Part shown: positions 52,892-62,874 of the stretch, piece by piece
Layout of the letters: each line of letters opens with the position of its first letter
Position numbering within the stretch: the first letter of the stretch is position 1
Notes under the pieces: model-generated
What the model saw: only the letters and a program-made list of their open reading frames with translations
Told to the model about the DNA's origin: nothing
Database searches by the model: none
Virus record (IMG/VR): IMGVR_UViG_3300044691_000465
Location: 1 to 62,874 of that record
Strand: one strand, 5' to 3'
Source of the DNA: a virus
DNA length: 62,874 nt
Program-made: the position numbers and the translations under genes

Positions 52892-53067
52892 ACGCGCGAG
52901 CAGCGGCCATCGCCGAAGGTTGGTTCGACTGGTTTGGCTATTGGTATTTCCTGGACCCGGTACGGTTCGTGGAAGAGGTGGCCCGGCCGTTTTATTTCAG
53001 AGGCACCGCGCGGGAGCTGTGCTTAGCACAAGGGATTGAGTTCCATGACGAGCAAGCGAAACTATGA
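52888..53067 (+). CDS. Small protein of unknown function (59 aa)
   Basis: ATGA start. Aromatic-rich (AEGWFDWFGYWYFLDPVRFV). Overlaps the amino acid:DNA transferase gene by 23 bases, so it may be translationally coupled to it. Confidence 0.5.
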   Translation: MNARAAAIAEGWFDWFGYWYFLDPVRFVEEVARPFYFRGTARELCLAQGIEFHDEQAKL

Positions 53068-53971
53068 GCGGTTGGCGATCGAGGACTTCGGCAAGCACCT
53101 GCTTGAGAGCGGCGACCTGGACCCGATCTACATCGCGTTGCGCAAGACCTTCGTGCACCCGGCAGGCAGCATCCCAGCGCTGAAGCGTTGGATGGTGGCC
53201 TACTGGTGCCTCTACCACGCTGGCACGGCCTGCTACCTCAGCGACTTCGAGGGCCGTGAGTTCTGGCTTGAGCTCAAGAAGGCCGCAGCCAACACCGAGC
53301 TCTCGCCCACTGGCGAGCGCTGGCAGCGCGGCCACGAGCGTCGCCACTTCCGGGGCGAGGCCAGCGTGAAAGCCGTCCGTACGATGATGGGGCGGTACCT
53401 TGATAACCCGGCCGACTTAGTCAATGTGATCATCGGCGACGATGAAGGCCGCGACATGGATCGGCCCTTCATGGAAATTTCGCAGCGCGCCCAGGAGCTG
53501 CCTCTCTTTGGGCCATGGATTGGTTTCAAGGTTGGAGACATGATCGACCGCGTGCTCGGCATACCAATCGACTTTGACAACGCAGCCGTGTTCATGTTCG
53601 ACGACCCGACGAAGGCCGCGCTCCGGCTCTGGCGTCTCAAGGCCGGCATTCACGAGCGCTATGATACCAACGGCAAGGTGTCCAAGGTGCAGGTGACGCC
53701 CAAAGACAAAGACAAGGCAATCAATCAGGTTGTGGACTATCTGATTGAACACTTCCGTAATTTCCAGGCACCTCCGCTTGGCGATCGGCCGGTTGGTCTG
53801 CAGGAGGTGGAAACCATCCTGTGCAAGTGGAAGAGCCATATGAACGGGCATTACCCGCTCTACAACGACATCGACGAAATCAACGACGGGATCAAGCCAT
53901 GGGTGAAGCACAGCCAGACCGCGCTAAATTTCGCAGCAGCCATGCCGCAAAACCCGGCACGCAAAACCTAG
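53045..53971 (+). CDS. Amino acid:DNA transferase (aGPT-PPlase clade 2-like)
   Basis: 308 residues. Features that match the alpha-glutamyl/putrescinyl-thymine pyrophosphorylase clade 2 family: an N-terminal DLDPIYIALRKTF, RWMVAYWCLYHAGTACYLSD, GHERRHFRG (about 96-104), LPLFGPWIGFKVGDM (about 153-166) and IPIDFDNAAVF. These enzymes, distantly related to HhH DNA glycosylases, attach an amino acid to pyrophosphorylated 5-hydroxymethyl-uracil in DNA. Start ATG 53045 behind AAGGGATTGAG. It is the first member of the modification cassette. The family call is strong; the amino acid (glycine is favoured by the flavin enzyme) is inference. Confidence 0.8.
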   Translation: MTSKRNYERLAIEDFGKHLLESGDLDPIYIALRKTFVHPAGSIPALKRWMVAYWCLYHAGTACYLSDFEGREFWLELKKAAANTELSPTGERWQRGHERRHFRGEASVKAVRTMMGRYLDNPADLVNVIIGDDEGRDMDRPFMEISQRAQELPLFGPWIGFKVGDMIDRVLGIPIDFDNAAVFMFDDPTKAALRLWRLKAGIHERYDTNGKVSKVQVTPKDKDKAINQVVDYLIEHFRNFQAPPLGDRPVGLQEVETILCKWKSHMNGHYPLYNDIDEINDGIKPWVKHSQTALNFAAAMPQNPARKT

Positions 53972-54090
53972 TACGTGGCGACAATTACTTTCGCCAGCTC
54001 TACTATGCAGCGGAGTTGGAGCTCATGCGCCATGATCAGCTTGTCTCCGAGGGCTACTTGTTCTTTCAAGACGGCTACTGGAGACCGTGA
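53899..54090 (+). CDS. Small protein of unknown function (63 aa)
   Basis: ATG 53899 lies 73 bases inside the transferase gene. The second half, NLVRGDNYFRQLYYAAELEL, is convincing; the true start may be later. TGATG overlap with the next gene. Confidence 0.4.
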   Translation: MGEAQPDRAKFRSSHAAKPGTQNLVRGDNYFRQLYYAAELELMRHDQLVSEGYLFFQDGYWRP

Positions 54091-54305
54091 TGCGCTTGAA
54101 CAATTTCATATTCCGCTGGCGCCTTGCACGCCGCAACCGGCTCCAGGAGTGGCACACCAAGTTTCTCTGGTGGCCACGCGACGTGTTCTGGCAAGAAGGG
54201 GATTGGGGCTACCACTGGCTTATCCACGTGCAGCGTCGCCGCTGCTACGGCCACTGGTTTGATCAGTACTACACCGAGTATCGTCGGCTGGAGCGGATGT
54301 GGTGA
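54090..54305 (+). CDS. Small basic, tryptophan-rich protein (71 aa)
   Basis: Begins MRLNNFIFRWRLARRNRLQE, with many W, H and R residues (KFLWWPRDVFWQEGDWGYHW). Possibly nucleic-acid binding. No family recognised. Confidence 0.45.
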   Translation: MRLNNFIFRWRLARRNRLQEWHTKFLWWPRDVFWQEGDWGYHWLIHVQRRRCYGHWFDQYYTEYRRLERMW

Positions 54306-54484
54306 CCACGTGCACGATCAAACACTTCTCCAGCCTGGGTGGTGGCGGGACCAACATTTGGATCGAGCACGAGGGCAAGCGCTACTATTCCCGCGTCAAC
54401 TACATAATCCAAAACAGCACTGGCATGCAGAACCTCTGCATCATGGAATTTCATAAACGGAGAAAGATATATGGCACGTACTGA
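54302..54484 (+). CDS. Small protein of unknown function (60 aa)
   Basis: GTG 54302 overlapping the previous stop. Beta-like, with SSLGGGGTNIWIEHEGKRYY. No family recognised. Confidence 0.4.
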   Translation: MTTCTIKHFSSLGGGGTNIWIEHEGKRYYSRVNYIIQNSTGMQNLCIMEFHKRRKIYGTY

Positions 54485-54719
54485 CGCGGAGATCGAAGCA
54501 GCGATTGTGCTTCACAAAAAGATCAGGACCAACGGCCTGCAGCGCGCCATTGACATTATGGAGCCGACGGAGAAGGCCTATGCACGTCGGCTGATCTGCC
54601 ACGCGCTGGAGGACATGATTGCACCGAAGGTTACAGCTGGCGAACCGCAGTCCCACTCCGATGGCACGCCAGCGCGGCCGGACCTTGGCCTGCTACGTGG
54701 CCGTGGCGGAGAAGCCTGA
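54471..54719 (+). CDS. Small helical protein (82 aa)
   Basis: ATG 54471 behind ACGGAGAAAGATAT. Helical first half (DAEIEAAIVLHKKIRTNGLQ), then a basic, disordered end. TGATG overlap with the flavin enzyme gene. Confidence 0.45.
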   Translation: MARTDAEIEAAIVLHKKIRTNGLQRAIDIMEPTEKAYARRLICHALEDMIAPKVTAGEPQSHSDGTPARPDLGLLRGRGGEA

Positions 54720-55618
54720 TGCACGTTCACCTCGAAGGCATGGGCCTGCAAGGTTCGCTGCTCGCCCACCGGCTCAGCATGTATGGTGTGCCGTTCACGT
54801 GGCACGATATCAACCGCACGGAGACCGCGTGGAAGGCCTCCACCGGCGCAATCTACCCGGCCGACAGTACCAACCACGGTCCAGACCGCGATGCCTACAC
54901 GGTTTGGAAATCGTGGTACGAGCACGGCTACTTTGAGAAAGAGTTTCTCGAGCGCTCCGGTGGCATGGTGTTCTGCACTAAGCAGCCACCGCACAAGGGC
55001 AAGTACAAGTTCACCGAGCTCCCAGGCAACCTGCGCTTGGGCGAGCAGCCCTCGTTCCACTTCAACGCGCAGACCTTCGTGAAGACACAGCAGCACCATT
55101 GGCGGAGTGGCCGAAAGCAGGGACCCGTTACCGCTGACATGCACATTGTCACGCACGGTTGGGGCATGCGTCTTGGGCACGCCTATTGGGGCTGGACCCG
55201 GCTTGTGAAGCTGGCCTATCCACGCGTGATGCAGCCTGAAGAACACCACCGGCCTGCGTTCTACTTCCGGCCGAACCGTTACATGATGGCCTATGCCTAT
55301 CCCGTTCCAGGAACCGATTGGTACTACGCTGGCAGCTCCATCATGAAGCAGGCCAAAGACAAGCTGCACGAGCTGCCGATCGTTCCGAAATATGATCGCT
55401 GGAAAAAGACCTTCGAGGATATTGCCCAGGGGCAGGTCATGGTGAAGGAAGAAGGCGAGTACCTCACTGGCTGGCGCCCCGCTGCTGCCGACGAAGATAC
55501 AGCCTGGGTACGCCGCAAGGGCAACGTGCTGCTCATGCGCCCGCTCTGGAACAGCGGCATTCGCCACTTCCCCGTGCAATGGGCTGGCGTTGCCACACAG
55601 CTAGGATTGATACCATGA
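54719..55618 (+). CDS. FAD-dependent lyase/oxidoreductase of the hypermodification pathway
   Basis: 299 residues with an N-terminal dinucleotide-binding motif, GMGLQG at residues 7-12 in VHLEGMGLQGSLLAHRLSMY, followed by an acidic end of the second strand (WHDI). This is the DAO/glycine-oxidase-like FAD fold. Phage members of this family are the flavin-dependent lyases that convert an attached glycine on 5-methyl-uracil in DNA to an aminomethyl group. The gene sits between the amino acid transferase and the acetyltransferase, which supports that role. The family is probable; the exact reaction is inferred. Confidence 0.75.
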   Translation: MHVHLEGMGLQGSLLAHRLSMYGVPFTWHDINRTETAWKASTGAIYPADSTNHGPDRDAYTVWKSWYEHGYFEKEFLERSGGMVFCTKQPPHKGKYKFTELPGNLRLGEQPSFHFNAQTFVKTQQHHWRSGRKQGPVTADMHIVTHGWGMRLGHAYWGWTRLVKLAYPRVMQPEEHHRPAFYFRPNRYMMAYAYPVPGTDWYYAGSSIMKQAKDKLHELPIVPKYDRWKKTFEDIAQGQVMVKEEGEYLTGWRPAAADEDTAWVRRKGNVLLMRPLWNSGIRHFPVQWAGVATQLGLIP

Positions 55619-55782
55619 AGGCGATCGGCGGAGTTCCAACACCGAACCCGGATTGGGAGAAGGTGACACACGGCCCTGAGACCCGTCGTCTCATGGTTCC
55701 CGGAGGATGGCTTTATTTCGTATCGCCTTCTCATATGGAACCTTGTCTAGTTTTTGTCCCGGAACCAAAGCAAGGCGATTGA
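55615..55782 (+). CDS. Small protein of unknown function (55 aa)
   Basis: ATGA start. Contains THGPETRRLMVPGGWLYFVS, beta-like. Placed within the modification cassette between the flavin enzyme and the acetyltransferase. Confidence 0.5.
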   Translation: MKAIGGVPTPNPDWEKVTHGPETRRLMVPGGWLYFVSPSHMEPCLVFVPEPKQGD

Positions 55783-55812
55783 AGACCCTGACTTTCCCGC
55801 TATTGTTGCGGG

Positions 55813-56253
55813 ATGGCTTACAGGTTCGCCCAGGTTGACACAGACGAAGATGATGTGGTGGAGCTCCTGACCGAGCTCCATCTGCACACCTTTGGTGGCG
55901 CGGAAGAGGCGCCCTTGCCTCTGTGGGAGAACGGGCACTGGTGGATCGGCTGGGAACAACGTTCCGCCACACCAGCGGCCTTCTGCGGCATCACCCAATC
56001 CATACTCGGACCCGGTATAGGCTACCACAAGCGCGCTGGCGTCGTGAAGGGCCACTATGGCAATGGCCTGCAGCGCAGGATGATCCGACTGCGCGAGCGG
56101 AAAGCACGCTCTCTGGGCTTCACCCAAATTGTCACCGACACAACTAACAATTGGCGTTCCGCTAACAACCTGATTGCGGAGGGATACCGCTTGTGGGCAC
56201 CTGTGTATCCCTGGGCGTTCGAGGAAACGCTCTACTGGCGAAAGTTTCTCTAA
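55813..56253 (+). CDS. GNAT acetyltransferase, probable DNA aminomethyl-uracil N-acetyltransferase
   Basis: 146 residues. The acetyl-CoA loop is GHYGNGLQRRMIRLRE (about 81-96, an R/Q-x-x-G-x-G/A relative), and the late TNNWRSANNLIAEGYRL (about 111-127) is the usual N-x-x-(S/A)xxxxxxxGF GNAT end. In this cassette it would acetylate the aminomethyl group on DNA. A hairpin CCCGC-N7-GCGGG (55796-55812) ends at the start codon and may hide the weak ribosome binding site. The fold call is firm; the substrate is inferred. Confidence 0.75.
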   Translation: MAYRFAQVDTDEDDVVELLTELHLHTFGGAEEAPLPLWENGHWWIGWEQRSATPAAFCGITQSILGPGIGYHKRAGVVKGHYGNGLQRRMIRLRERKARSLGFTQIVTDTTNNWRSANNLIAEGYRLWAPVYPWAFEETLYWRKFL

Positions 56254-56268
56254 AGAAAAGGATAGGAC

Positions 56269-56508
56269 ATGTTTGTCACCATCGTTGCACTCATGTGCAT
56301 GACAACTGGTAACGTGCCGTTCTGCCGGGAAGAAATCGTTACCGACAGTTCCATCTCGGAGAACATCACGTTCTTCAGCTGCGCCAACGGCGCCCAGGCA
56401 CCATTGGCAGAATGGAAAGCCAACCACCCGGTCTACCGCAACGAGAATTGGACCATCAAGCGGTACATCTGCGTGCCCGGACACTACGTGATCAAGGACG
56501 CGATCTGA
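56269..56508 (+). CDS. Possible exported Cys-rich small protein (79 aa)
   Basis: Behind AAAGAAAAGGA, a variant of the shared leader. It begins with a hydrophobic stretch (MFVTIVALMCMTTGNVPFC) like a short signal peptide, and has four cysteines, fit for two disulphides. No family recognised. Confidence 0.5.
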   Translation: MFVTIVALMCMTTGNVPFCREEIVTDSSISENITFFSCANGAQAPLAEWKANHPVYRNENWTIKRYICVPGHYVIKDAI

Positions 56509-56981
56509 TGCAAGGCCATCTCGGCGATAATGTTCGCCCGTTCAAGCCCTCCAGCGGAGGTGGTGGCTCCAAGAAGGGCAAACCCCAATGGCACTGGCCT
56601 TGGGTTTTGAAAGCCATTGCTGACGCTATCTTTGAGCGAGCAAAAGGTTCAAGCGATGCTTGGAAGACAGATCGCAGCGCGCGACTGAGCCTTGCTCAAT
56701 TCAAAGACCGCATGGACGATATTGCGCCCGGCTGGGAAGACTACTGCAGCGCGGTAGGAGGCCATCGCGCTACGCCTTGGGCTGAGCTGCTTCACAATCG
56801 TGTTTACAAGATGCATTATTCTGGCACTAGCGATCGCGGTGTTGGCCACAGCCCAGAAACGCGCGCTTGCGATAGCAGTGAGCACTTGACCAAGCATTAC
56901 CACGTTAGCAGCCCGATGGCGAAATTGCACCTCGCCGTGGTGCGTGGCGAAACACGTGTAGACTGGAAATCATTCCTATGA
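56508..56981 (+). CDS. Protein of unknown function in the modification cassette (157 aa)
   Basis: TGATG start at 56508. A Gly/Ser/Lys-rich leader, then a helical domain with RMDDIAPGWEDYCSAVGGHR and a late SSEHLTKHYHVSSPMAKLHL. Histidines and cysteines are scattered, with no recognisable enzyme motif. Position makes a role in modification possible. Confidence 0.45.
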   Translation: MQGHLGDNVRPFKPSSGGGGSKKGKPQWHWPWVLKAIADAIFERAKGSSDAWKTDRSARLSLAQFKDRMDDIAPGWEDYCSAVGGHRATPWAELLHNRVYKMHYSGTSDRGVGHSPETRACDSSEHLTKHYHVSSPMAKLHLAVVRGETRVDWKSFL

Positions 56982-57235
56982 TCATCGTTCGAGTAGAGCT
57001 CTTGTCGGCCATCACTGGCAAGACAACCGAGCTGGCGCGCATGGACCTGTGCAACATCGGTGGCACCAGGAACAGCGGCGATTACTCGGTGCAGGCCATG
57101 CGAGGCCGCGACCACGCGACGTTGTCGAAAAGGATTGCACAGCGAGAAGGCAAAGTGTTAGGTCACCCGCGACTTTCCCAGCACGTCTGGTATCTCGTTG
57201 CCAAAGCCCTAAAGGCGCTCAGCTATGATCATTAA
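56978..57235 (+). CDS. Small protein of unknown function (85 aa)
   Basis: ATGA start at 56978. Starts MIIVRVELLSAITGKTTELA, with MDLCNIGGTRNSGDYSVQAM; a small alpha/beta protein of a type common in phage genomes, of unknown role. Overlaps the kinase gene by 11 bases. Confidence 0.55.
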   Translation: MIIVRVELLSAITGKTTELARMDLCNIGGTRNSGDYSVQAMRGRDHATLSKRIAQREGKVLGHPRLSQHVWYLVAKALKALSYDH

Positions 57236-57797
57236 CATCCGTGGCACGTCCGGCTCTGGCAAGAGCACGCTGGTACGAAACGTTACCGCGCTCTATCAGG
57301 CCCGCTTCCCGGTAAAGGTTGTCGGCCGCAAGCAGCCGATTGGCTACATTCACCAGTGCGGTACCGGCAAGAGCCTTGCTGTTGTGGGGCATTACGAGAC
57401 AGACTGTGGTGGCTGTGATACCATCGCCAACATGGACGAAATCTATGACAAAGTCCGGGAAGCGCACGCCGCTGGAATGGATGTTCTTTACGAAGGACTT
57501 CTCATTAGCGCCGATGCTAATCGAGTTATCGCTTTACATACTGACGGGCTTCCTGTTCGCGTCATTGCGCTGAACACGCCGCTGGACGTCTGCCTCGCCA
57601 GTGTCAACCACCGGCGCCGTAACACTGCCATGATCAAAGGCAAGGAATACAAAGGCGACGTCAATCCCAAGAACACCACGAGCAAGTTCGCTGGCGTTAA
57701 GTCCAGCCTGAAGCGGATCGAGGCCGCTGGCATTCCCAACAGCTGGGAGAGCCGCGAGAGCGCGCTGGCGCTGATCCGCACGGAGTTCAACCTATGA
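57225..57797 (+). CDS. P-loop kinase, 5-hydroxymethyl-dU DNA kinase (ATPase part)
   Basis: 190 residues. Walker A GTSGSGKST at 7-15, then GRKQPIGY, VVGHYETDCGGCDTI near 60-74, VLYEGLLIS near 95, and a late NHRRRN lid. The GHYET...GGCDTI motif is typical of the P-loop kinases in phage thymine hypermodification clusters that phosphorylate 5-hydroxymethyl-uracil in DNA. ATGA overlap with the helical partner gene. The family call is quite confident. Confidence 0.8.
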   Translation: MIINIRGTSGSGKSTLVRNVTALYQARFPVKVVGRKQPIGYIHQCGTGKSLAVVGHYETDCGGCDTIANMDEIYDKVREAHAAGMDVLYEGLLISADANRVIALHTDGLPVRVIALNTPLDVCLASVNHRRRNTAMIKGKEYKGDVNPKNTTSKFAGVKSSLKRIEAAGIPNSWESRESALALIRTEFNL

Positions 57798-58690
57798 GCC
57801 AGGACATTTTCTTCGAGACGGCGCGCGAGCGCTATCGCATGATGCTGCGCAAGAACATTGCGGCAGAGGCTGACACCATCCTGCAGGATACAATCCTAGA
57901 CCGGCGCTGGTCTGATGATCCCATCTTCCAGGAGTTTCGCTTCTGCAACGTGTTTCGCGAAGACGACAAGGTCACCAAGTGGTTTCGCGAACACGTCCGC
58001 AACCCTTTGGGCGCAAGGCGAGCGGACCAAGTTCGTGCTGCCGTGGTGTTCCGTTGGTTCAACAACATCGCCACGGGCGAGCAGCTGGAAACATTCTTCC
58101 TGTTAGAGAATTGGAGGCATGAAGAGGCACGAGGCCTCGTGCAGCTGATGGCCGATCGCGGTGAACGCATTCTCAACCCGGCATATATGATCAAGTCGCC
58201 GCCAGGGATGAACAAAACAACCGGCCTGTTCCAGTGCATTGCCAACGTGCTCGACGACCTGGAGATGATCACCACCGAGATGATGGAAGGCTCCAGCCTG
58301 CAGAAGGCGCACACGCTGCTCCAGCGCTACCCGTACCTTGGCCCCTTCATGGCCTACCAGATGATCTGCGACCTTCGCTTCACCGGAGTGCTCGGCCACG
58401 CCACCGACATCAACACCTGGACTGCCCCTGGGCCAGGGTCTGCACGCGGCGTTGGTCGCATGTTCTTCAGTGATGTGGCAAGATACAACTATAACAGCGA
58501 GCGCGACCAGGAGCTGCTTTGCGACAAGATGCGCTACCTTCTTGAGTGCAGCCGGGAAGCAACCTTCTGGCCAACGGAATGGCCCAAGTGGGAGCTGAGC
58601 ACCGTGCAGCATTGGTGTTGCGAGTACGACAAGTACATGCGCGTCCTGTTGGGTGAAGGAACGCCGAAACAGAGATACCGTCCCGCGTAG
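57794..58690 (+). CDS. 5-hmdU DNA kinase helical-domain protein (aGPT-PPlase superfamily)
   Basis: 298 residues. EFRFCNVFREDDK (about 47-59), VFRWFNNIATG (85-95), GPFMAYQMICDLRFT (about 183-197) and APGPGSARGVGRM (about 210-222) match the family named 5-hmdU DNA kinase helical domain, related to HhH DNA glycosylases. In some phages I believe this domain is joined to the P-loop kinase; here the two are separate ATGA-coupled genes. It probably binds and flips the modified base for the kinase, or itself transfers a group. Confidence 0.75.
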   Translation: MSQDIFFETARERYRMMLRKNIAAEADTILQDTILDRRWSDDPIFQEFRFCNVFREDDKVTKWFREHVRNPLGARRADQVRAAVVFRWFNNIATGEQLETFFLLENWRHEEARGLVQLMADRGERILNPAYMIKSPPGMNKTTGLFQCIANVLDDLEMITTEMMEGSSLQKAHTLLQRYPYLGPFMAYQMICDLRFTGVLGHATDINTWTAPGPGSARGVGRMFFSDVARYNYNSERDQELLCDKMRYLLECSREATFWPTEWPKWELSTVQHWCCEYDKYMRVLLGEGTPKQRYRPA

Positions 58691-58727
58691 TTGGCTTCTA
58701 ATGGCGCTACAGAAAAGGAATTGTCCC

Positions 58728-59729
58728 ATGCACGTTATCAATGTACGCAACGTTCACGACGCGTTGCCGGAAGCACTGCGCGAGCTGGCCCGACTGCCCA
58801 ACGGTGGCGTGCAGCGAGAGACGCGCAACGGCGCCGTGCGCATGTTCCCCATGCCAGTCACCACGGTGTACAGCGAGCCAACCGAGCGGGTTATGTTCCA
58901 CCCGGAACGCGACTGCAACCCGTTCTTCCACCTATACGAGAGCCTGTGGATGTTGGCCGGAAGGCGAGACGTGAAGAGCGTTGCGCACTATGTCAAGCGC
59001 ATGGCCGACTTTAGCGATGATGGTGTGAACTTCCATGCAGCCTACGGCTACCGCTGGCGCAAGCACTTCAAATTCGACCAGATCAGTCGCATCATCAAAG
59101 CGCTGAGCACCAACCCAGATGACCGCCGCTGCGTGCTCCAGATGTGGGACGCCAAGGTCGACCTTGGGCAGGAGGGCAAGGACTTCCCCTGCAACACCAT
59201 CGCCACGTTCAGCGTCAACTGGCTTGGCAAAGTTGACATGACCGTGTTCAACCGCTCCAATGATATCGTGTGGGGCGCTTACGGCGCCAACGCTGTGCAC
59301 TTCTCCATGCTGCAGGAATACATTGCAGCCTCGATCGGCCGGGAGACCGGCATGTACTTTCAAGTCTCAACCAATTTCCACGGCTACCTTCAGACGTTGG
59401 AGCCCGTGCTTGAGCTTGTGAACTCATACGACAATCCGTACAAGATGGACGAAGTGAAGCCCTTCCCGATCATGACCGAAGGGCAAGCGGCGTTCGACCT
59501 GGACCTGTCAACGTACCTGGCACGTGGGCCAATCGTCGGCTTCAGCACCGCGTTCTTCCGGAAGGTTGTAACGCCAATGCATTGGGCGCACGAGGCCTAC
59601 AAGGCCGGTGGCGTCGATCGTTTCATCAATGCCATGGAAATCCTGAACCAATGCGAGGCCACTGACTGGCGCCGCGCGGCGATGGAGTGGATCATAAGGA
59701 GGCAACTCAATGCACAACGTTTCCGTTAA
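58728..59729 (+). CDS. Thymidylate synthase homologue, probable dUMP hydroxymethylase
   Basis: 333 residues. The catalytic cysteine is C155 in KDFPCNTIATF (canonical TS has PCH). The dUMP-binding NRSNDIVWGAYGANAVHFS (175-193) keeps the asparagine (N188) that selects dUMP over dCMP. Phage relatives in hypermodification clusters make 5-hydroxymethyl-dUMP instead of dTMP. It has its own CAGAAAAGGA leader (58710-58719). A plain thymidylate synthase cannot be excluded from sequence alone. Confidence 0.8.
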   Translation: MHVINVRNVHDALPEALRELARLPNGGVQRETRNGAVRMFPMPVTTVYSEPTERVMFHPERDCNPFFHLYESLWMLAGRRDVKSVAHYVKRMADFSDDGVNFHAAYGYRWRKHFKFDQISRIIKALSTNPDDRRCVLQMWDAKVDLGQEGKDFPCNTIATFSVNWLGKVDMTVFNRSNDIVWGAYGANAVHFSMLQEYIAASIGRETGMYFQVSTNFHGYLQTLEPVLELVNSYDNPYKMDEVKPFPIMTEGQAAFDLDLSTYLARGPIVGFSTAFFRKVVTPMHWAHEAYKAGGVDRFINAMEILNQCEATDWRRAAMEWIIRRQLNAQRFR

Positions 59730-60270
59730 GAAGCTCGCCGAAAGCGTCGTCCAGAGCCGCTCCGGCGGCAAGGTGGAGCGCTGCCACGGCCTCCCACACC
59801 ATGGCACCTACAGCAACGCGGCGCACCAATGGGGCGTGGCCATGCTGATGCATTACCTCTGGCCGGATGACTTTCCGCGCCTCGCGCTGGTGTGCCTCTC
59901 GCACGACGTTCCGGAAGCCTGGGTAGGCGACATTCCGGCGCCGACGTGCCGCTATATGCCTGGGCTAAAGGAAGGCCTGAACGAAGCGGAGGGCAACATC
60001 AACGAGGACCTGCTGCTGCCTGCTGAGCACAAGCTAGAGGCGATCGACTACGCCAAGCTGAAGTGCTGCGACCGGCTTGAGTTCTGGCTTTGGTGCTGTG
60101 AGCAGGAGCTCTACGGCAACCTCTACGCCAAGGAAGGCCGCAAGGAGATCGAACGCTACTTCGTCGAGGTGCCGCTGCTTCCTGAAGCCCAGGAGCTGTT
60201 CATGGAAATGCGTTCCATGGACCTGCTGCCGGTGCAGGCTGGTGTTATGAAGGCCGCGTTCGGCGGATGA
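59710..60270 (+). CDS. YfbR-like HD phosphohydrolase (5'-deoxynucleotidase-like)
   Basis: 186 residues with an ideal AAGGAGGCAACTC ribosome binding site inside the previous gene's end. H39, the H65-D66 pair in LSHDVPEAWVGDIPAP and later acidic residues form an HD site; the extension HDxxExxxGDxPxP is that of YfbR-type deoxynucleoside 5'-monophosphatases. Directly after the TS homologue, it may destroy dTMP or another competitor so that the modified nucleotide is used. DatZ of diaminopurine phages is from the same superfamily. Confidence 0.75.
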   Translation: MHNVSVKKLAESVVQSRSGGKVERCHGLPHHGTYSNAAHQWGVAMLMHYLWPDDFPRLALVCLSHDVPEAWVGDIPAPTCRYMPGLKEGLNEAEGNINEDLLLPAEHKLEAIDYAKLKCCDRLEFWLWCCEQELYGNLYAKEGRKEIERYFVEVPLLPEAQELFMEMRSMDLLPVQAGVMKAAFGG

Positions 60271-60810: not shown

Positions 60811-61297
60811 GGCTATCCATCATTTCGTCAGCGAAGAAAGTCGGGCGGCTTTTCTGGAGTTGACAAATGGTTTGCTCCGGAAGGACGCTGGCGAATATGT
60901 TCATACGCGCACAGGTGACCCGGAAGACGAGCAGTTTCATTACCAACGGCGCCTTGGTATAGCTCTGTTGACCGCGTTCAAGCGCCCTAATCAGAGCGTT
61001 GAGCTCGAAGACTTCATGATTGCAGCTGCGGACTTTAAGTATCACAGCGTTGCCAGCGTGAAAAGTTATCTGCATGAAATGGCTAACGAGGGTGTTGTGG
61101 CTTCGCATGGGCGTGGGCATAACTCTTGGTATCTCACGAAAGAATTTAAGAATGACCCAGCTTCCCCTGTTCGCTCCGACGTCGACGTGGTCGCCACCCG
61201 ACATGAGCTGCCTTCCGGACTGGAGCTCAGCGAAGCGGGTAGCCATCGATGTGGAGACCAAGGACATTCACATCAAGACCCTGGGCATCGGGGTTAG
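60788..61297 (+). CDS. Winged-helix-like protein of unknown function
   Basis: 169 residues. Residues about 70-118 (YHSVASVKSYLHEMANEGVV, then GHNSWYLT) look like a winged helix. The last 48 residues lie inside the DNA polymerase gene in another frame and are low-complexity, so the functional part probably ends near the polymerase start. A DNA-binding or regulatory role is possible. Confidence 0.5.
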   Translation: MARHTRYEAIHHFVSEESRAAFLELTNGLLRKDAGEYVHTRTGDPEDEQFHYQRRLGIALLTAFKRPNQSVELEDFMIAAADFKYHSVASVKSYLHEMANEGVVASHGRGHNSWYLTKEFKNDPASPVRSDVDVVATRHELPSGLELSEAGSHRCGDQGHSHQDPGHRG

Positions 61298-62874
61298 GCG
61301 CGGCGGTTACATCACTGGCTACTCGTTCGCGATCGAGGATGGCCCCAAGCACTACCTGCCTGTTCGGCACGCTGGTGGCGACAACCTGGACGCCATTCAG
61401 GTTCGGCGCTACCTTCGGGCGCAGGCAGAGAAATTCAAGGGTGACTTCGTCGGCGCGAACCTCGCGTACGACATGGACTACATGCTCTCCGAGGGCATTG
61501 ATTGGAAGCACGTGCGCTACTGGCGCGACGTGCAGGTGGCTGCACCGCTAATCAACGAGCTCCACGACCGCTTCAGCCTGCAGCACATCTGCGAGCGCTA
61601 TGGCTTGCCGGGCAAGGACGAGGCCGTTCTGCGTGAGGCAGCGCGTGCCTACAACGTCGATCCGAAAGGTGGCATGTGGCAGCTTCCAGCCCGCTTTGTT
61701 GGGCAGTATGCAGAGGCCGATTGCGAGCAGCCACTGCTGGTATCACGGAAACAAGAACGGGAGATCGACGATGAAGGGCTGTGGAAAATCTATAACCTTG
61801 AAAGTCAGGTGCTCCCGGTGCTCGTCCGGATGCGGCGACGTGGTGTGCTTATCGATCAAACGAAGCTGGAGCAGATCGAAAACTGGTCCCTCGCCCAAGA
61901 GGCAGCAGCGCTTGACCAAGTTCGAGCAGCGACTGGTGTCAAGATTAATGTCGGAGACGTTTGGAAGGGCGATGTTCTTGCTCCCGCGCTCGAAGCAATT
62001 GGTATCAAGCTTGAGCGTACTGCAAACGGTAAGCCCTCCATTCGCAAGGATGTGCTAGCCGACGTCAACCACCCGGTGGCCGACGCGTTGGCTCGTGCGC
62101 GCAAGGTGAACAAGCTGCGCACCACGTTCGCTGCCTCCATCCGCCGTTATATGACCAATGGCCGCATTCACTGCACGTTCCACCAGATCGCGCGAGAGGA
62201 CGAAGACACGGGCGACCAACGCGGCGCGCGCTATGGGCGCCTCAGCTGCGTCGACCCGAACATGCAGCAGCAACCAAGCCGCGACGAGTTTGCCAAGGAG
62301 TGGCGGTCGATCTACATCCCAGAGCCGGACACGCTTTGGGCCTCGAACGACTACAGCCAGCAAGAGCCACGCTGGACAACGCACTTCGCTGCAATCGCTA
62401 AGAAGGGTGGCCTTCCTGGCGCGCTGGAGGCCTGTGCTGCCTACCACGCGGACCCGCTGCTGGACAACCACCAGTTCATGGCGGACCTGACCAAGCTGCC
62501 CCGCAAGTTCGCGAAGAACATCTACCTTGGCCTCTGCTATGGTGAAGGTGGCGCAAAGCTGGCCCGCGACTGCGGCTTGCCTACTCGTTGGGCTTGCGCT
62601 CTGGGCGGATGGAAGAACAGGGAATTGTTCTACTTTGAAGACCGCAACGATGCGATAGCCAAACGCCAGGATGCAGGTGAGGGCTATGTTTTTGAAACCG
62701 CTGGCATCGAGGCACAGAAGATTATTGACACCTTTGACGAGCGTGCACCGTTCATCAAGCAGCTGGCGGACTTTGCCAAAGACCGCGCTAACAAGAACGG
62801 TTTCATCATCACGGGAGGCGGACGCAAACTGCACTTCCCGCAGAAGGTGGACGGAAGTTTTGATTGGTGTCACA
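61152..62874 (+). CDS. Family A DNA polymerase with 3'-5' exonuclease (3' end outside the window)
   Basis: 574 residues are present. Begins MTQLPLFAPTSTWSPPDMSC, the usual phage PolA start. Exonuclease motifs VAIDVETKD, GANLAYDMDYM and YAEADC; polymerase motif A as NDYSQQEPRW; motif B as RKFAKNIYLGLCYG. In motif B the residue matching E. coli Phe762/T7 Tyr526 is leucine. Motif A DYSQQEPR differs from the common DYSQIELR. The palm motif C (HDE) lies past the window edge. Start 61152 overlaps the previous gene by 146 bases; ATG 61203 is an alternative. Confidence 0.92.
   Translation, partial: MTQLPLFAPTSTWSPPDMSCLPDWSSAKRVAIDVETKDIHIKTLGIGVRRGGYITGYSFAIEDGPKHYLPVRHAGGDNLDAIQVRRYLRAQAEKFKGDFVGANLAYDMDYMLSEGIDWKHVRYWRDVQVAAPLINELHDRFSLQHICERYGLPGKDEAVLREAARAYNVDPKGGMWQLPARFVGQYAEADCEQPLLVSRKQEREIDDEGLWKIYNLESQVLPVLVRMRRRGVLIDQTKLEQIENWSLAQEAAALDQVRAATGVKINVGDVWKGDVLAPALEAIGIKLERTANGKPSIRKDVLADVNHPVADALARARKVNKLRTTFAASIRRYMTNGRIHCTFHQIAREDEDTGDQRGARYGRLSCVDPNMQQQPSRDEFAKEWRSIYIPEPDTLWASNDYSQQEPRWTTHFAAIAKKGGLPGALEACAAYHADPLLDNHQFMADLTKLPRKFAKNIYLGLCYGEGGAKLARDCGLPTRWACALGGWKNRELFYFEDRNDAIAKRQDAGEGYVFETAGIEAQKIIDTFDERAPFIKQLADFAKDRANKNGFIITGGGRKLHFPQKVDGSFDWCH

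What the first reader, a model, noticed from the sequence alone, without database searches (positions are those of the whole stretch)
53045..59729. A thymine hypermodification cassette predicted to make an acetylated aminomethyl-uracil in DNA
Six genes in 6.7 kb fit one pathway: amino acid:DNA transferase (53045), flavin-dependent lyase (54719), GNAT acetyltransferase (55813), P-loop 5-hmdU DNA kinase (57225), its helical partner (57794) and a TS-like dUMP hydroxymethylase (58728). Established knowledge: phages such as Pseudomonas M6 and Salmonella ViI install amino acids on 5-hydroxymethyl-dU after replication, and flavin lyases and acetyltransferases trim and acetylate them. Inference: with a lyase and a GNAT but no PLP decarboxylase or radical SAM enzyme visible, the end product should be 5-aminomethyl- or 5-acetylaminomethyl-dU. 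The genes between them (55615, 56269, 56508, 56978) are candidates for unknown steps.
Basis: partly seen in the sequence, partly recalled or inferred. Interest (0 to 1): 0.93.

Follow-up and report, generated by a model that had tools for sequence, protein, structure and literature searches.

The report
Phage thymine-remodelling genes with new lyase
This phage carries a gene set that very probably replaces some thymines in its DNA with aminomethyl-uracil, a chemistry already known from phage PaMx11, but here the key flavin enzyme comes from a family that no library used here describes, and a second gene may cap the product with acetate.

Summary
The cassette is real and at the stated coordinates. 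Four core genes are confirmed. The amino acid:DNA transferase belongs to PF18724 and resembles a solved glycinyltransferase. The 5-hmdU kinase P-loop protein and its helical partner (PF18723) are both there. The thymidylate-synthase relative carries the two residue changes seen in hydroxymethyl-uracil phages. All four are 42-54% identical to phage PaMx11, whose cassette has the same order: transferase, flavoprotein, GNAT, kinase, helical protein, synthase. The predicted product class is therefore known.

The flavoprotein and the GNAT are not PaMx11's. The flavoprotein (54719-55618) has no Pfam, PHROG or NCBIfam match and does not align over its length with PaMx11's solved flavin-dependent lyase. 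Its AlphaFold2 model (pLDDT 92) is a D-amino-acid/iminodiacetate/glycine-oxidase fold. Relatives sit in 22 loci, 21 with the transferase. They never occur with the PaMx11-type lyase or with PLP or radical-SAM enzymes, and they swap with that lyase among close transferases. I read it as a second, uncharacterised family of deglycinating enzymes giving 5-aminomethyl-dU.

The GNAT fold is confirmed, but its family occurs in phages without cassettes, so acetylation of the DNA is only about even odds.

Overall: a new variant of a known system. Nothing here was tested chemically.

The parts
53045..53971 (+). Amino acid:DNA transferase (ADDT, aGPT-PPlase2 type), probably a glycinyltransferase acting on phosphorylated 5-hmdU in DNA
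   Evidence: PF18724 E 3e-22; phmmer to PDB 8z2m 'Glycinyltransferase' E 3e-97 and 25qc E 2e-99; 52% identical to PaMx11 (tblastn)
54719..55618 (+). Flavoprotein of an undescribed family ('FLB'), DAAO fold; proposed deglycinating enzyme giving 5-aminomethyl-dU
   Evidence: no library match; AF2 pLDDT 92, best PDB matches iminodiacetate oxidase, DAAO, glycine and sarcosine oxidase; 21 of 22 FLB loci carry ADDT
55813..56253 (+). GNAT-fold acyltransferase; same slot as the GNAT of PaMx11 but a different family; role in DNA modification unproven
   Evidence: fold search; no alignment with PaMx11 gp48; relatives where no cassette was found
57225..57797 (+). P-loop 5-hmdU DNA kinase (Walker A GTSGSGKST)
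   Evidence: 52% identical to PaMx11 gp49; PF18748 weak; phrog_800 E 9e-20
57794..58690 (+). Helical partner of the 5-hmdU DNA kinase
   Evidence: PF18723 E 4e-40; 43% identical to PaMx11 gp50; overlaps the kinase gene by 4 bases
58728..59729 (+). dUMP hydroxymethylase (thymidylate synthase relative)
   Evidence: 53% identical to PaMx11 gp51; keeps the catalytic Cys and the uracil-reading Asn, but has Met for Trp80 and Asn for His147 as in an SPO1-type phage
59710..60270 (+). HD-domain 5'-nucleotidase-like protein, follows the synthase as in M6 and PaMx11; probably nucleotide-pool management
   Evidence: PF12917 E 4e-7; same neighbour in M6 and PaMx11
56508..56981 (+). Small protein of unknown function inside the cassette; one homologue, also between ADDT and kinase, in L064
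   Evidence: phmmer E 5e-32 to L064:3949-4863; no phage or family-library match
56978..57235 (+). Small protein of unknown function, phrog_8231, overlapping the kinase start
   Evidence: phrog_8231 E 1e-9

Best explanation
A PaMx11-type thymidine hypermodification cassette of a Mesyanzhinovviridae-like siphovirus. The TS relative makes 5-hydroxymethyl-dUMP, which enters DNA. The P-loop/helical kinase phosphorylates 5-hmdU in DNA, and the ADDT displaces the phosphate with glycine to give N-alpha-glycyl-thymidine. The DAAO-fold flavoprotein, from a family unlike the known lyase, then removes the two-carbon part of glycine (as glyoxylate) and leaves 5-aminomethyl-dU. The GNAT may acetylate that amine to 5-acetylaminomethyl-dU; I put this last step at about even odds. 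Shown by sequence and predicted structure: the identity of the six proteins, their order, and the linkage of the flavoprotein family to ADDT. Inferred: the substrate, each reaction, and the end product.
For: Core proteins match PaMx11 at 42-54% identity and in order. ADDT matches a solved glycinyltransferase. TS residues follow the hydroxymethylase pattern. The flavoprotein model matches enzymes that oxidise N-substituted glycines: iminodiacetate oxidase E 4e-13, TM 0.71, and sarcosine and glycine oxidases. That is the chemistry N-alpha-glycyl-thymidine needs. Its GxRP motif (R253 and P254 invariant in 17 sequences) lines up with GIRP of PaMx11 gp47 in a forced global profile alignment; in DAAO and glycine oxidase this Arg binds the substrate carboxylate (own knowledge). 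FLB occupies the PaMx11-lyase slot, never co-occurs with it or with PLP/rSAM (0 of 22 against 45 of 74 loci), and alternates with it within one well-supported ADDT clade, where the other core proteins are 44-66% identical.
Against: No chemistry is known to me for any member of the flavoprotein family. The profile comparison with the known lyase covers only the dinucleotide-binding motif (Prob 39, 46 columns). A DAAO-type enzyme could cut either C-N bond. The GNAT has no comparative link to cassettes. The loci are related to each other, so the Fisher p-values overstate independence. The record is incomplete at the polymerase end.
Confidence: 0.72

Rival explanations
1. Same pathway, but it ends at 5-aminomethyl-dU; the GNAT is an unrelated phage acyltransferase that landed between lyase and kinase and acts on another substrate.
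For: GNAT relatives lie in a T7-like Limnohabitans phage and in contigs beside structural or lysis-type genes, with no cassette genes found there. No other FLB locus has a GNAT of either family. The GNAT does not align with PaMx11's.
Against: It sits exactly where PaMx11-type cassettes keep their GNAT, and that GNAT occurs only with a lyase (10 of 10 loci, p 7e-7), so a free amine seems to invite acetylation.
Confidence: 0.45
2. The flavoprotein does different chemistry from the PaMx11 lyase, for example oxidising the carbon attached to the uracil to release glycine and leave 5-formyl-dU, or acting on an amino acid other than glycine.
For: No full-length similarity to the known lyase. The family is also used in phages with a TET/JBP-type oxygenase instead of the TS route.
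Against: The swap with the known lyase on closely related transferases and the match to N-substituted-glycine oxidases point to the same substrate and outcome.
Confidence: 0.15
3. Ordinary nucleotide-metabolism genes with no DNA hypermodification.
For: The TS, kinase and HD proteins belong to folds used in nucleotide metabolism.
Against: ADDT and HMUDK_hel are DNA-hypermodification families. TS groups with cassette, SPO1-like and ViI-like enzymes, not with ThyA.
Confidence: 0.03

Closest known systems
Pseudomonas phage PaMx11 cassette (gp46-gp51; gp47 = PDB 8z2o flavin-dependent lyase)
   Same: Same gene order: ADDT, flavoprotein, GNAT, P-loop kinase, helical partner, TS relative, HD protein; core proteins 42-54% identical
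   Different: The flavoprotein and GNAT do not align with gp47 and gp48 beyond short motifs; extra small genes lie between them
Pseudomonas phage M6 cassette (5-aminoethyl-dU)
   Same: Same transferase, kinase, helical and TS families and the same genome neighbourhood, including a 60% identical ribonucleotide reductase
   Different: M6 follows the transferase with a threonine-dehydratase-like gene and a photolyase-annotated gene (its PLP and radical SAM enzymes, own knowledge); neither is in this record
Gordonia phage MossRose (gp2-gp5) and Rhodococcus phage Tonitrus (gp3-gp8)
   Same: Carry the same flavoprotein family beside ADDT and a P-loop nucleotide kinase
   Different: They have a TET/JBP-type oxygenase rather than a TS relative as likely hydroxymethyl source, Ploopntkinase3 instead of HMUDK plus helical partner, and no GNAT found

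Membership tests
Thymidine hypermodification cassette (M6/PaMx11 kind) | Amino acid:DNA transferase PF18724 | tested here: met
   E 3e-22 over cut-off; PDB glycinyltransferase E 3e-97
Thymidine hypermodification cassette (M6/PaMx11 kind) | 5-hmdU DNA kinase P-loop plus helical partner | tested here: met
   PF18723 E 4e-40; 52% and 43% identity to PaMx11
Thymidine hypermodification cassette (M6/PaMx11 kind) | dUMP hydroxymethylase rather than thymidylate synthase | tested here: met
   By sequence only: W80M and H147N with Cys146 and Asn177 kept; tree splits it from ThyA at 99/98, with long branches. Activity not tested.
Thymidine hypermodification cassette (M6/PaMx11 kind) | Modified thymidine in virion DNA | not testable with these tools
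   uncultivated virus record
Characterised flavin-dependent lyase (PaMx11 gp47, PDB 8z2o) | Full-length sequence membership | tested here: not met
   BLASTP 32 residues only; hhalign Prob 39 over 46 columns; profile of the window family finds no 8z2o
Characterised flavin-dependent lyase (PaMx11 gp47, PDB 8z2o) | Dinucleotide-binding motif and DAAO-type fold | tested here: met
   invariant GxGxxG; Foldseek to DAAO, IdaA and glycine oxidase; DAO is the Pfam family of gp47
Characterised flavin-dependent lyase (PaMx11 gp47, PDB 8z2o) | Converts N-alpha-glycyl-thymidine to 5-NmdU | not testable with these tools
   needs enzyme assay
Cassette GNAT (PaMx11 gp48) | Sequence membership | tested here: not met
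   14-residue match only; family HMM does not recover it
GNAT superfamily | GNAT fold | tested here: met
   AF2 pLDDT 82; 412 PDB matches at E<=1e-3

The most novel reading that the evidence does not exclude
The flavoprotein family is an independent recruitment that cuts the other C-N bond or acts on another amino acid, so this phage and its relatives carry a thymidine derivative not yet described in any phage (for example 5-formyl-dU).
Probability: 0.15. Interest if true: 0.82.

Novelty: new variant of a known kind. Interest (0 to 1): 0.55.

Why it matters
It suggests that the step that turns a DNA-bound glycine into an aminomethyl group has two solutions with no detectable full-length sequence similarity that swap on the same core pathway, one of them without any entry in the family libraries searched. 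The second family also occurs in Gordonia and Rhodococcus phages, where it is annotated as hypothetical protein or oxidoreductase. It gives a short list of enzymes to test for new DNA bases and for new ways of installing amines in DNA.

Tried and rejected
Megablast of the region against phages: no match. GNAT searches in viral contigs with the single sequence found nothing; with two sequences, three unrelated contexts. Gene 56508: no relatives in phages or viral contigs, one in L064. Apparent FLA/FLB BLASTP hits at E 1e-15 came from untrimmed stop-to-stop ORFs that run over the transferase gene out of frame; after trimming the best is 6e-5 over 46 residues. Lee 2022, Lee 2018 and Wen 2024 are not held, so I could not check whether this flavoprotein family is already mentioned there. 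Foldseek does not list 8z2o among the 50 rows shown, so the two lyase folds were not superposed.

Full report
What is there. The window is a 62,874-base linear virus record. Its ribonucleotide reductase is 60% identical to that of phage M6 and its polymerase, cut off by the end of the record, 55% identical to that of PaMx11, so it is a relative of the Mesyanzhinovviridae.

Core genes. 53045 is an amino acid:DNA transferase (PF18724), with PDB relatives named glycinyltransferase. 57794 is the helical partner of the 5-hmdU kinase (PF18723) and 57225 its P-loop protein (52% identical to PaMx11 gp49). 58728 is a thymidylate-synthase relative, 53% identical to PaMx11 gp51. Aligned with E. coli ThyA it keeps Glu58, Cys146, Arg166, Asp169, Asn177, His207 and Tyr209 but has Met for Trp80 and Asn for His147, as does an SPO1-type phage enzyme (Goe26); a ViI-type one (Maynard) has Ala and Asn. 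Trp80 is known to keep water away from the methylene intermediate (own knowledge), so this is the pattern of a hydroxymethylase. In a tree it falls with cassette, SPO1-like and ViI-like enzymes, apart from ThyA and T4 gp42 (99/98), although the outgroup branches are long.

The same order is known. PaMx11 has transferase gp46, FAD protein gp47, acetyltransferase gp48, kinase gp49, helical gp50, TS gp51 and HD gp52. [quoted passage not shown] paper not held).

What differs. The window's flavoprotein does not align with gp47, and its GNAT does not align with gp48. The flavoprotein has no match in Pfam, PHROGs or NCBIfam. I call its family FLB and the PaMx11 family FLA. Profile-profile comparison gives only the dinucleotide-binding motif (Prob 39, 46 columns; Prob 61 on trimmed sets). 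A higher-scoring BLASTP signal was an artefact of untrimmed ORFs overlapping the transferase gene. AlphaFold2 on 17 relatives gives pLDDT 92 and pTM 0.90. Foldseek places it with iminodiacetate oxidase (E 4e-13, TM 0.71), D-amino-acid oxidase, sarcosine oxidase and glycine oxidase. These enzymes oxidise amino-acid amines, several of them of the glycine type; N-alpha-glycyl-thymidine is an N-substituted glycine.

Linkage. A scan of viral contigs with the flavoprotein alone returned 19 loci. All but L010 hold a transferase gene, and in L010 a Ploopntkinase3 gene is the neighbour. With the transferase scan and annotated phages, 96 loci remain after removing 7 copies. FLB is in 22, of which 21 have ADDT. 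FLB is never with FLA, never with PLP/rSAM enzymes (0 of 22 against 45 of 74, Fisher p 6e-8). The PaMx11 GNAT is in 10 loci, all with FLA (p 7e-7). Loci are related, so these p-values are indicative only. FLB goes with a TS relative in 11 loci and with a TET/JBP-type oxygenase in 9, including Gordonia and Rhodococcus phages. In the transferase tree the FLB label needs at least 5 changes on well-supported branches, and one clade (99/94) mixes FLA loci L012 and L035 with FLB loci L016, L019 and L029. In these the other four proteins are 44-66% identical while the lyases share only short stretches. The simplest reading is that FLA and FLB do the same job on the same glycylated base.

The GNAT. 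The AF2 model (pLDDT 82) is a GNAT fold. Relatives lie in a Limnohabitans T7-like phage and three contigs where no ADDT, kinase, helical, TS, HD, FLB or TET gene was found (the contigs are fragments). None of the other 21 FLB loci has a GNAT of either family. Its position is that of the PaMx11 GNAT, which favours acetylation of 5-aminomethyl-dU; its family history does not. I give acetylation about 50%.

In-between genes. 56508-56981 has one homologue, fused to a phosphoribosyltransferase-like part, between transferase and kinase in L064. 56978 is phrog_8231, function unknown. The others gave nothing useful.

Verdict. A new variant of a known kind: PaMx11-type thymidine hypermodification with an undescribed flavoenzyme family in the lyase slot. 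Shown: identities, order, linkage, predicted folds. Inferred: reactions and end product.

Noticed in passing
window 61152-62873: The record ends inside the DNA polymerase gene (55% identical to PaMx11), so the virus genome is not complete here.
   Followed up: partly
L064:3949-4863: An ORF with a phosphoribosyltransferase-like N-terminal part and a C-terminal part homologous to window 56508-56981, between transferase and kinase of a PLP/rSAM cassette.
   Followed up: partly
L016, L017, L019, L029 between helical partner and TS: A protein of about 205 aa in this slot; the L016 copy is Nmad5, nucleotide modification associated domain, and L019 and L029 copies look near-identical by eye. A tblastn with the M6 gene in the same slot finds nothing in the window.
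   Followed up: partly
L051 and L053: Cassettes that combine the PaMx11-type lyase with a radical SAM homologue, a combination not seen in the other loci.
   Followed up: no
window 55783-55816: A hairpin-like sequence CCCGC-TATTGTT-GCGGG directly before the GNAT start codon, with no obvious ribosome-binding site.
   Followed up: no
Mycobacterium phage Phelemich oxidoreductase S5YQU6: A structural match to the flavoprotein model among viral proteins (E 3e-8, TM 0.61-0.69), possibly another phage DAAO-fold enzyme worth checking for DNA modification.
   Followed up: no
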